Assembly (NCBI GenBank): GCA_022592435.1
Contig: JABYQS010000014.1
Span: 1-64,000 of the forward strand
Length of the DNA: 64,000 nt
Source of the DNA: Cerioporus squamosus
Lineage: Eukaryota > Basidiomycota > Agaricomycetes > Polyporales > Polyporaceae
Reading direction: 5' to 3'
A program made the position numbers and the translations under genes. Position 1 is the first letter of the stretch, and every line of letters begins with the position of its first letter. The notes below the pieces were generated by a model. The model was not told the origin of the DNA. It ran no database searches and was given only the letters and a program-made list of their open reading frames with translations. Shown piece by piece: positions 61,197-63,987 of this stretch.

Positions 61197-62258
61197 ATGA
61201 AGTCGCTCTCTGCTTCCCTCGTCACCGTTGCTCTTTTCGCTGCTGGCGCCGCCGCCCAGACGTTCCAGATCAACACCCCGTGAGTGCCCCTCAAGCACGC
61301 GCCCTATCTCCGTAGCCCTGACCCGTTGCCCCGCTAGCAACCCCCCGACGCAGTGTGTCCCGACCCAGTTCACCTGGTCTGGCGGAACTCGTACGTTTTC
61401 TTTTCCCCTGCAGCCCAAATGTGCGAAGCTGACGTGCAGTTTCCCTCTTCAGCCCCCTACTTCTTGGTGAGTTCGACTTCGCTGTAGCCAATGGAAGTGA
61501 CGCTTGACGCGACCCGTGTCTTGTTCCTCTAGGCGTGAGTGTTCTCTTCCTTCATCCCTTTCTTCAGTCCTCAGGTTAACGCCATCCTCCAGTATCAACC
61601 CCGGAGGCCAGACTGGCGCTGCTGCTCTCCAGCAGTACTCCGGCCTTACTGGCACCTCCTTCACGTGGTCCAGCAACATTTCTGCAGGTACGCCCGACGA
61701 GCTGCCTTCGCAAATCAGGACTTTGACTGACGTTCTTTTTACGCAGGCACTTCGATCGGTCTTTCTCTCACTGATTCGACCGGTGCTACTGCCCTGTCCG
61801 CGCCTGTCACCATCCTGTCTGGCCGTACGTACCACGAGCAACTCTCGGTTTTAGATCATATTCTCATGCTGCATGCGCATCCACAGCCGACAGCAGCTGC
61901 TTGAACGGTGGTGCAAGCACCGGCGCTGGCTCTACCGGCGCCAGCACTTCTGCTGCTGGCACTACTGCTGCCGGTACCTCCGCCGCTGGCACGACCTCCG
62001 CTGCCGGTTCCTCTGGTACGGCTACCACCCCTACCGGCAGCGGCACCACCTCCAAGGCCTCGGGCACCAACAGCGGCTCTGGCACCTCGTCGTAAGTCCT
62101 TGCAACCGCGCGGTATGGCTAGTCACGTATACTGACTTCATCACAGAACCGCTAGTGCGACTGGTGGCTCTTCAGGAAGCAACGGCGCCATGTCCAACGC
62201 CGCCTCTGCGGGCGTCGTTGGCATCATTGGTGCCGTCGCCGCTGCTCTCCTTGCTTGA
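61197..62258 (+). CDS. GPI-anchored Ser/Thr-rich cell-surface protein (Kre9/Knh1-like N-domain)
   Basis: Eight exons: 61197-61279, 61338-61390, 61453-61466 (14 nt), 61533-61534 (2 nt), 61593-61687, 61747-61824, 61887-62091, 62147-62258; 213 residues, total length a multiple of three. A signal peptide (MKSLSASLVTVALFAAGAAA) precedes QTFQINTP. The N-domain reads VPTQFTWSGGTPPYFLAINPGGQTGAA ... GTSFTWSSNISAGTSIGLSLTDSTG, the Ser-Thr-GPI/Kre9-like fold. A Gly/Ala/Ser/Thr linker expected to be O-glycosylated follows (about 115-190), and the C-terminal GPI signal ends in the hydrophobic AGVVGIIGAVAAALLA. Such proteins sit in the wall or plasma membrane; a beta-glucan-related role is assumed from the family. 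The 2-nt exon joins YFL to INPGGQ; without it the frame is lost. Confidence 0.85.
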
Positions 62259-62986: not shown

Positions 62987-63987
62987 ATGAAGCTATCTCT
63001 AGAAAGCACCCAGGTGGAGGCACCTCTCGGCATCCCATCCATCGCCGACCCGTCCGTGCCGCTCACGGAGTCGTACACGTACCACTCACCGACGCCGACG
63101 GGCGAGGGACCGTACATTCTCGGGGTTGATGAGGCGGGGAGAGGGCCCGTGCTGGGCCCGATGGTGTACGGCGTGGCGTACTGCCCGGTGGCGTACAAGG
63201 AGCAGCTGGAACAGCTCGGGTTCGCCGGTGAGTGACTGTACTGGCACGGCGTGTTCTCGTTCTCGACGTTTTGAGGGTGAGGGTCGTGGGCTAACGTGGT
63301 GTGTATGAACGCGTACCAGACTCGAAGACGTTGACTGCGCAGGTGCGCGCGAACTTGTTGGAGACGTTGGGCTCCGACCCTGCGAACCTCGGCTGGTCTG
63401 TTCGTGTCCTCAGGTCAGTACTCAGTACTCAGTCGCGCATACCCTTCCCTTCCCCTCCCGTGCCTCCATCCTCCCGAACACGCGAGCCTGACCACGCCAC
63501 CGTCCCATCCCCAGCCCCAAGTGCATCTCCGCAGGCATGCTCCGCCGCCCGCCCACGAACCTGAACCAGCAAGCGCAAAACGCGACGGTGCTGCTCATCC
63601 GCGAGGTGCTCGCGCGCGGGCTGCAGCTCGCGCACGTGTACGTCGATGCGCTGGGGAAGACGACGACGTACGAGGCGTACCTGTCCGCGCTCTTCCCCGG
63701 CATCGGGTTCACCGTGCAGGCGAAGGCGGACCAGACGTTCAAGATCGTGGGCGCGGCGAGCGTCGCGGCGAAGGTCACGCGCGATGCGTGGGTCGAGGGG
63801 TGGGTGTATGAGGAGGACGCGCCGCCCGTGAATTGCGCGGGGGGAGTAAAGGCGAGGTTGTTCCAGCAGCCTGGGCGTGTTGGGGAGGATGTGGAGATGG
63901 AGGCGGGGGTGGAGAACAAGACGGAGGCGGAGGGCTTCAAGGGCGAGGGCAAGTGGGTGGAGAAGACTGGGAGCGGGTATCCGTCTG
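62987..63987 (+). CDS. RNH201: Ribonuclease H2 catalytic subunit A, 3' end beyond window
   Basis: Cleaves RNA in RNA:DNA hybrids and removes single ribonucleotides from DNA. Exons 62987-63227, 63320-63413 and 63515-63987, then a GTATGT donor; the gene continues past the right edge. The family residues are present: [20 protein letters not shown] (D48, E49), [10 protein letters not shown] after intron 1, VYVDALG (D156) and [21 protein letters not shown] (D184), completing the DEDD metal site. Intron 2 begins GTCAGT. After the conserved core there is a Glu/Gly/Lys-rich insertion ([20 protein letters not shown]...), longer than in many relatives. The start [11 protein letters not shown] is the first Met in frame. 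Confidence 0.9.

What the first reader, a model, noticed from the sequence alone, without database searches (positions are those of the whole stretch)
61453..61593. Predicted 2-nucleotide exon in a GPI-anchored protein gene
Between PPYFL (exon 61453-61466, itself only 14 nt) and INPGGQ (from 61593) the reading frame cannot be kept by any single intron. Bases 61531-61540 read AG-GC-GTGAGT: an acceptor, two bases, then a perfect donor. Including GC gives PYFL-A-INPGGQ, the continuous strand expected of Kre9-like N-domains, and makes the whole CDS divisible by three. A two-base exon between two normal-length introns (66 and 58 nt) would be among the shortest exons known, and would challenge exon-definition models for intron-defined fungal splicing. 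A recursive-splicing step is an alternative explanation.
Basis: partly seen in the sequence, partly recalled or inferred. Interest (0 to 1): 0.82.

Follow-up and report, generated by a model that had tools for sequence, protein, structure and literature searches.

The report
Two-base exon in a polypore gene
A mushroom cell-surface protein gene very probably contains an exon only two bases long, an extreme case of the tiny exons already known from plants and one other fungal group, and it still needs RNA proof.

Summary
Bases 61531-61540 read AG-GC-GTGAGT, and an eight-exon model with a 2-nt exon (61533-61534) gives a stop-free 642-nt CDS, 213 aa. Its four flanking splice sites score at the 42nd-58th percentile of 53 introns from this genome; both introns have normal length and a branch point. 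An equally good pair arises in 12 of 20,000 shuffled and 10 of 20,000 genomic intervals, or 1 and 0 with branch points. A paralogue in the same genome, uninterrupted there, aligns without a gap across the joint. The Cys-to-Trp spacing that results, 42, is the commonest in homologues. The window very probably comes from Cerioporus squamosus; the deposited protein P0001 is reproduced exactly by a chain that already contains this 2-nt exon, but with two other acceptors. Intron definition is not challenged, since the introns can be removed in turn. No RNA was available. Verdict: probably real, a new member of a known kind.

The parts
61197..61279 (+). exon 1 (83 nt), start codon and signal-like N-terminus
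   Evidence: agrees with depositor protein P0001
61338..61390 (+). exon 2 (53 nt), ...QCVPTQFTWSGGT + 1 base
   Evidence: intron 1 has a YTRAY branch point 16 nt from the acceptor end
61391..61452 (+). intron 2 (62 nt), branch point 20 nt from the acceptor end; the depositors instead end it at 61413 (23 nt)
   Evidence: against: acceptor 61452 scores only at the 21st percentile, 61413 at the 87th
61453..61466 (+). exon 3, 14-nt micro-exon (PPYFL with the base from exon 2)
   Evidence: P[YF][FY]L present in 41 of the 65 hits
61467..61532 (+). intron 3 (66 nt), donor GTGAGT (47th percentile), acceptor CTCTAG (53rd), branch point TTGAC 25 nt before the acceptor end
61533..61534 (+). exon 4, the 2-nt exon GC (first two bases of the codon GCT, Ala51)
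61535..61592 (+). intron 4 (58 nt), donor GTGAGT (42nd percentile), acceptor CTCCAG (58th), branch point TTAAC (61576-61580) 13 nt before the acceptor end
61575..61592 (+). 18 nt that the depositors' model keeps as exon (LTPSSS); they contain the branch point of intron 4
61593..61687 (+). exon 5 (95 nt), third base of the Ala codon, then INPGGQ...
61747..61824 (+). exon 6 (78 nt)
61887..62091 (+). exon 7 (205 nt), Ser/Thr-rich stalk
62147..62258 (+). exon 8 (112 nt), hydrophobic C-terminal tail and stop
   Evidence: GPI anchoring is inferred from the tail, no tool tested it

Best explanation
A constitutive 2-nt exon (GC, 61533-61534) lies between two ordinary short introns in a small secreted, Ser/Thr-rich, probably GPI-anchored protein gene of Cerioporus squamosus. 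It supplies the first two bases of the Ala codon that joins PPYFL to INPGG inside one beta strand. Most likely the introns are recognised separately by intron definition and removed one after the other; the spliceosome cannot sit on acceptor 61532 and donor 61535 at once. If intron 4 goes first, GC becomes the start of a normal exon; if intron 3 goes first, GC becomes the end of a short but ordinary exon. The donor context (-3 to -1 = GGC) is the same in both orders, so no special machinery is needed. Shown: the sites, their quality, the frame, the homology constraint. Inferred: that RNA is spliced so, and that removal is sequential.
For: Frame and CDS. Both donors and acceptors sit at the 42nd-58th percentile of 53 introns collected without supervision from 264 kb of this genome, each intron with a YTRAY branch point and normal length. 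Chance 10-12 of 20,000 without and 0-1 of 20,000 with branch points. Of 84 GT-AG frame-keeping chains it is the only one that keeps PPYFL with all sites, lengths and branch points normal. Paralogue L009, open in DNA across the domain, aligns without a gap from the Cys through the joint (SGGTPPYFLAI against SGGTPLFDLAL), with the same Ala. Cys-to-Trp spacing is 42 in the proposed protein and in 44 of 89 homologues outside Polyporaceae and 7 of 29 Polyporaceae, in each group the commonest value. Trametes maxima P0066 reads FFL-A-IKPGG. Depositor protein P0001 is reproduced letter for letter by a chain with GC 61533-61534 as an exon; of 5 GC dinucleotides between 61467 and 61574 it is the only one flanked by AG and GT. 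The joint lies in strand 48-54 of the P0002 model, in blocks of pLDDT 95 and 86. Skipping the 2-nt exon, the 14-nt exon or both, or retaining intron 3, intron 4 or both, gives products of 51-108 aa instead of 213.
Against: No RNA evidence of any kind was available. No DNA of a related species could be read, so conservation of the 2-nt exon is untested. A small assembly error here cannot be excluded. The depositors' model has the same GC but two other acceptors, and one of these, 61413, scores better (87th percentile) than the acceptor I prefer for intron 2, 61452 (21st). The training set of 53 introns is small and was gathered by coding score, not by transcripts; about 28% of it, and intron 6 of this very gene, lack a YTRAY branch point, so that criterion is not absolute. 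The paralogue L009 is 3 residues shorter just after the joint, so it marks the joint by alignment, not by total length. Half of the other homologues do not have spacing exactly 42. The structure model rests on 38 sequences that I chose as clean at the joint out of 65.
Confidence: 0.85

Rival explanations
1. The depositors' form: the 2-nt exon is used, but intron 4 ends at 61574 (40 nt), giving FL-A-LTPSSS-INPGG, and intron 2 ends at 61413 (23 nt). It could exist as a minor alternative-acceptor product, since the 18-nt difference keeps the frame.
For: It is the deposited protein P0001. Acceptor 61413 scores at the 87th percentile. Trametes meyenii P0006 has the same shape, FL-A-LIAVC-S-IKPGG.
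Against: Acceptors 61413 and 61574 have no YTRAY branch point; 61574 is at the 9th percentile; the branch point TTAAC lies inside the retained 18 nt. T. maxima, which is nearly identical to T. meyenii there, has A-I with no insert. The insert would fall inside a beta strand.
Confidence: 0.05
2. No 2-nt exon: intron 2 is retained and one 126-nt intron (61467-61592) is removed, giving GGTRTFSFPLQPKCAKLTCSFPLQPPTSC-INPGG.
For: In frame, with good sites and a branch point; its weakest site scores higher than the weakest site of the preferred chain.
Against: Loses PPYFL, which is in the majority consensus of the unselected alignment A1; needs retention of an intron with usable sites; 126 nt is far outside the training length range.
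Confidence: 0.03
3. Assembly error or a broken allele: bases are missing or added near the joint and AG-GC-GT is coincidence.
For: No second assembly and no reads could be checked.
Against: Chance of such a site is low. The rest of the 213-aa frame is intact.
Confidence: 0.06
4. Nested intron (stwintron) or zero-exon recursive splicing removes 61467-61592 in steps without leaving a base.
For: Two donors and two acceptors in tandem within 126 nt.
Against: Leaves PPYFL joined to T-ATC: shifted frame, 90-aa product. Acceptor and next donor are separated by GC, so there is no AG|GT ratchet.
Confidence: 0.01

Closest known systems
1-nt exon of Fusarium CYP621A (Nelson and Syed 2026, PMC12940212; parts 1 and 2 of 3 of the text read)
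   Same: Fungal gene; ultra-short exon inside a conserved motif, inferred from incompatible phases, a double-length intron and an intronless relative as length marker; the authors find nearly all deposited transcripts wrong at the joint.
   Different: 1 nt, not 2; Ascomycota, not Basidiomycota; that paper has 20 orthologues and 18 SRA reads, neither of which was available here.
1-nt exon of Arabidopsis APC11 (Guo and Liu 2015, PMC4674806; part 1 of 3 of the text read)
   Same: Constitutive ultra-short exon between AG and GT, required for the frame.
   Different: Plant; shown by cDNA and mutant reporter constructs; lies in a 422-nt stretch first taken for one intron.
P450 micro-exons of Phanerochaete chrysosporium (PMC1184071; passages read)
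   Same: White-rot basidiomycete; many micro-exons between short introns.
   Different: Shortest exon stated there is 6 bp.
Stwintrons, spliceosomal twin introns (search listing and starts of abstracts only)
   Same: Two introns packed together and removed in sequence, in fungi.
   Different: One intron lies inside a splice signal of the other and no exon base stays between them; here two bases must stay.

Membership tests
Ultra-short (1-5 nt) constitutive exon | Canonical AG before and GT after the tiny exon, each of normal strength | tested here: met
   CTCTAG|GC|GTGAGT; 53rd and 42nd percentile of 53 training introns
Ultra-short (1-5 nt) constitutive exon | Omission breaks the frame | tested here: met
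   Skipping gives a frameshifted 90-aa product
Ultra-short (1-5 nt) constitutive exon | Length marker (uninterrupted relative) agrees with inclusion | tested here: met
   L009 aligns ungapped across the joint, though 3 residues shorter just after it; Cys-Trp spacing 42 is the mode in homologues
Ultra-short (1-5 nt) constitutive exon | Same tiny exon in orthologous DNA | not testable with these tools
   No DNA of related fungi could be read; protein models give only indirect hints
Ultra-short (1-5 nt) constitutive exon | RNA reads across the joint, constitutive inclusion | not testable with these tools
   No RNA data on hand
Stwintron | Whole complex intron removed with no exon base left between the parts | tested here: not met
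   Removal of all 126 nt shifts the frame
Recursive (ratchet) splicing | Acceptor AG directly followed by donor GT | tested here: not met
   AG and GT are two bases apart
Kre9/KNH-like N-terminal domain (PF10342) | Match in Pfam | tested here: inconclusive
   0 families for this protein at E<=1; 5 of the 66 members of A1 match at E<=1, best E 4e-05
Kre9/KNH-like N-terminal domain (PF10342) | Ig-like beta sandwich | tested here: inconclusive
   7 strands predicted for P0002, whole-model pTM 0.49; Foldseek gives Ig and FN3 domains among other folds, 0 matches at E<=0.001, best 0.0033

The most novel reading that the evidence does not exclude
The paired 14-nt and 2-nt exons are an old, conserved feature of this gene in Polyporaceae. 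Deposited models break at this joint more often there (8 of 28 clean by regex, P0001 left out; 7 of 28 after hand check of P0007) than in other homologues (62 of 89). Four Polyporaceae models (P0009, P0013, P0021, P0067) read V-S right after FFL, as translation of a GTRAGT donor in phase 0 would. P0006, P0013 and P0067 read S before I, as an AG|T acceptor in phase 2 would. A phase-0 donor and a phase-2 acceptor in one gene again demand an exon of 2 mod 3 bases. The gene would then be a natural reporter of strictly sequential splicing, because all six skipped or retained forms tested are truncated.
Probability: 0.35. Interest if true: 0.5.

Novelty: new member of a known kind. Interest (0 to 1): 0.38.

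Why it matters
If RNA confirms it, this would be an exon below 3 nt in a second fungal gene, and the first that I could find in Basidiomycota. That rests on six searches of the held PMC library, which lacks most subscription journals: 20 of 51 papers seen in the listing; 14 of 14; 20 of 186; 2 of 2; 0 papers; 8 of 8. It shows that ultra-short exons can be found from phase logic alone, fits the view that recognition across the intron sets no practical lower limit on exon size, and suggests that deposited models of an orthologue group can fail at one joint. It does not overturn a splicing model.

Tried and rejected
Rejected: single-intron solutions that keep PPYFL (donor 61484 scores below all 53 training donors, donor 61471 at the 2nd percentile, acceptor 61539 at the 0th). 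GC-AG donors were allowed in one enumeration (336 chains in all); none entered the 14 best-scoring chains or passed the cut-offs. Tandem duplication of one intron as the origin: introns 3 and 4 are no more alike than shuffles (263 of 400 mononucleotide shuffles score as high); introns 2 and 3 (4 of 400) and 3 and 5 (2 of 400) look somewhat alike, out of 21 pairs tested, and I did not follow that. Mobile intron (introner) origin: only the query itself was found for intron 3 and for GC plus intron 4 (that search skips common words). An allelic copy of the gene: among the 13 matches the only ones above 80% identity are the window's own exons; the nearest other is the 49% paralogue.

Led nowhere: one search used a pattern with a wrong letter (AAGG instead of TAGG), so its 35 hits say nothing about this site. 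One search read minus-strand loci on the wrong strand and was repeated. The first intron training run gave only 5 introns and was replaced (then). The structure search gave no confident match.

Caveats on counts: both protein searches scored only about 8,000 candidates each. 'Clean' is a regex; it wrongly passes P0007 (ACV) and P0074 (VKV) and wrongly fails at least P0043, P0064, P0104 and P0108, which look clean by eye. I assigned the Polyporaceae list from genus names; P0100, a second Cubamyces paralogue, was left among 'others'. P0001 was dropped from the Fisher table because it is the gene itself. Alignment A2 (38 of the 65 hits) and A3 (13 sequences) were chosen by me, A2 for being clean at the joint.

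Full report
What was checked. The window is G000:C46:1-64000 of a 53.97-Mb, 988-contig assembly. Contig C46 has 454,473 bases, the same length as the contig behind P0001, 'hypothetical protein C8T65DRAFT_693277 [Cerioporus squamosus]', which is 92% identical to my spliced protein over 100% of it.

The gene. On the + strand, eight exons (83, 53, 14, 2, 95, 78, 205, 112 nt) and seven introns (58, 62, 66, 58, 59, 62, 55 nt) give 642 nt and 213 aa with a signal-like start, a small domain, a Ser/Thr-rich stalk and a hydrophobic tail. The letters at 61531-61540 are AGGCGTGAGT, as reported.

Is the frame argument sound? Not as worded. Enumeration of GT-AG chains between exon 2 and INPGGQ (introns of at least 40 nt) finds 84 that keep the frame without a stop: 12 with one intron, 51 with two, 21 with three. 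Nine keep PPYFL. Examples are donor 61484 to acceptor 61592 (PPYFLVSSTSLINPGG), and retention of intron 2 with one 126-nt intron (TSC-INPGG), whose weakest site is better than the weakest site of the preferred chain. But only the 2-nt exon gives PPYFL, one residue, INPGG. With cut-offs near the 10th percentile for sites and lengths of 50-79 nt, two chains survive: the 2-nt model, and a one-intron chain that retains intron 2, loses PPYFL and adds 40 residues.

Site quality. Without a transcript set I collected 53 introns from 264 kb (the window plus C1:1-200000) by coding score on both sides, then built donor and acceptor weight matrices. Donor 61467 is at the 47th percentile, donor 61535 at the 42nd, acceptor 61532 at the 53rd, acceptor 61592 at the 58th. 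Branch points (YTRAY) lie 25 and 13 nt before the two acceptor ends. The rival donor 61484 is below all 53, donor 61471 at the 2nd percentile, acceptor 61539 at the 0th. Against my reading of intron 2, the depositors' acceptor 61413 scores at the 87th percentile and mine, 61452, at the 21st; I prefer 61452 for length (62 against 23 nt), branch point and homology. The set is small, and 28% of it, as well as intron 6 of this gene, have no YTRAY, so these are guides, not proofs.

Chance. In the 126-nt interval, an AG-N2-GT pair as good as this arises in 12 of 20,000 dinucleotide shuffles and 10 of 20,000 genomic stand-ins; with branch points in both introns, 1 and 0 of 20,000. With any length 2 mod 3 up to 26 nt and loose cut-offs the figures are 666 and 729, and 29 and 20 with branch points.

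Homology. The nearest paralogue in the same genome, L009 (C703:12886-13200, - strand, 49% identity), is open in DNA across the domain. A local alignment runs without a gap from the Cys to the residue after the joint (SGGTPPYFLAI against SGGTPLFDLAL) and then opens a 3-residue gap. Among the 118 proteins, Cys-to-Trp spacing is 42, as in the proposed protein, in 44 of 89 outside Polyporaceae and 7 of 29 Polyporaceae. A regex for one residue at the joint passes 62 of 89 outside Polyporaceae but 8 of 28 Polyporaceae without P0001 (Fisher p = 0.00016); by eye P0007 should not count and a few others should. The test treats related sequences as independent, so the p-value is too small. Polyporaceae models thus tend to fail at this joint, as expected if the 14-nt exon, the 2-nt exon or both are common there. 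It does not by itself show the 2-nt exon in other species.

Hints from the faulty models. Trametes meyenii P0006 reads FFL-A-LIAVC-S-IKPGG, whereas T. maxima P0066, otherwise almost identical there, reads FFL-A-IKPGG: the same six-residue (18-nt) difference as between the depositors' model and the one proposed here for C. squamosus. Four models (P0009, P0013, P0021, P0067) read V-S after FFL, as retention of a GTRAGT donor would; retention of intron 3 in C. squamosus also gives V-S. These are back-translations, hence inference; T. meyenii and T. maxima could also have a single phase-2 intron after FFL-GC.

The depositors already have it. P0001 is reproduced letter for letter by the chain 61197-61279, 61338-61390, 61414-61466, 61533-61534, 61575-61687, 61747-61824, 61887-62091, 62147-62258. 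So the deposited model contains the same 2 nt, perhaps because the predictor too needed them to keep the frame. I take it as an ab initio model because of the 23-nt intron 2; whether RNA backed it is unknown to me.

Structure. AlphaFold2 on P0002 with 37 homologues (chosen by me as clean at the joint) places residues 48-54 (FFLVINP) in one strand; blocks from residue 21 to 110 have pLDDT 85-95, the whole model 68.7 with pTM 0.49. No PDB match reached E 0.001; the top hits, at E 0.0033 and above, include Ig and FN3 domains among other folds. Pfam gives nothing for this protein and PF10342 for 5 of the 66 members of A1, best E 4e-05. 'Kre9-like' is a plausible but weak label.

Mechanism. Introns of 55-66 nt fit recognition across the intron (established knowledge). 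The two machines cannot bind acceptor 61532 and donor 61535 together, so the introns must go one after the other; either order leaves an ordinary exon for the second step (inference). The -3 to -1 bases of donor 61535 are GGC before and after removal of intron 3, so the sequence does not favour an order. The six failures tested (skip 2 nt, 14 nt or both; retain intron 3, intron 4 or both) give products of 51-108 aa instead of 213.

Origin. Introns 3 and 4 are not alike (263 of 400 shuffles as good), and the genome search found no other copy of either, so tandem duplication of one intron or an introner burst is not supported. The route offered for Fusarium by Nelson and Syed, rescue of a lost base by a cryptic exon, is possible here but untested.

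Known before. Single-nucleotide exons are reported in Arabidopsis APC11 with mutant constructs (PMC4674806, part 1 of 3 read) and in Fusarium CYP621A with SRA reads (PMC12940212, parts 1 and 2 of 3 read), the latter called by its authors the first in a fungal gene. That paper also cites exons of 2-5 bp in Arabidopsis, Drosophila and humans. Phanerochaete chrysosporium P450 genes have micro-exons, the shortest exon being 6 bp (PMC1184071, passages). Six phrases for a 2-nt exon gave 0 papers; searches for micro-exons with basidiomycete terms listed no such exon. The finding is therefore a new member of a known kind.

Verdict. Probably real (0.85), of moderate interest (0.38): extreme, well constrained and easily tested, but not a challenge to splicing theory.

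Noticed in passing
window 61391-61413 and 61535-61574: The deposited model P0001 uses a 23-nt intron 2 and a 40-nt intron 4; both end before the apparent branch points, so the deposited protein probably has two spurious inserts.
   Followed up: yes
P0004-P0006, P0009-P0013, P0015, P0017-P0019, P0021-P0023, P0029, P0030, P0044, P0067, P0076: These 20 Polyporaceae models are not clean at the PPYFL joint by the regex; close relatives disagree with each other (T. meyenii and T. maxima; T. sanguinea P0024 and P0030) and the two T. versicolor models P0009 and P0018 differ.
   Followed up: partly
L009 (G000:C703:12886-13200, - strand): A paralogue of the same domain with a Ser/Thr-rich stalk and a likely transmembrane segment, without introns in the domain.
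   Followed up: partly
window 62987-63235 (+): The start of the next gene has a [17 protein letters not shown] stretch that looks like ribonuclease H2 subunit A (motif recalled, not searched).
   Followed up: no
L019 and L020 (G000:C579 and C231): Two nearly identical long open frames of a possibly related membrane protein on different contigs; perhaps haplotype copies left in the assembly.
   Followed up: no
window 61391-61452, 61467-61532 and 61688-61746: Introns 2 and 3, and 3 and 5, of this gene align better than most shuffles (4 and 2 of 400), out of 21 pairs tested; may be chance or shared ancestry.
   Followed up: no
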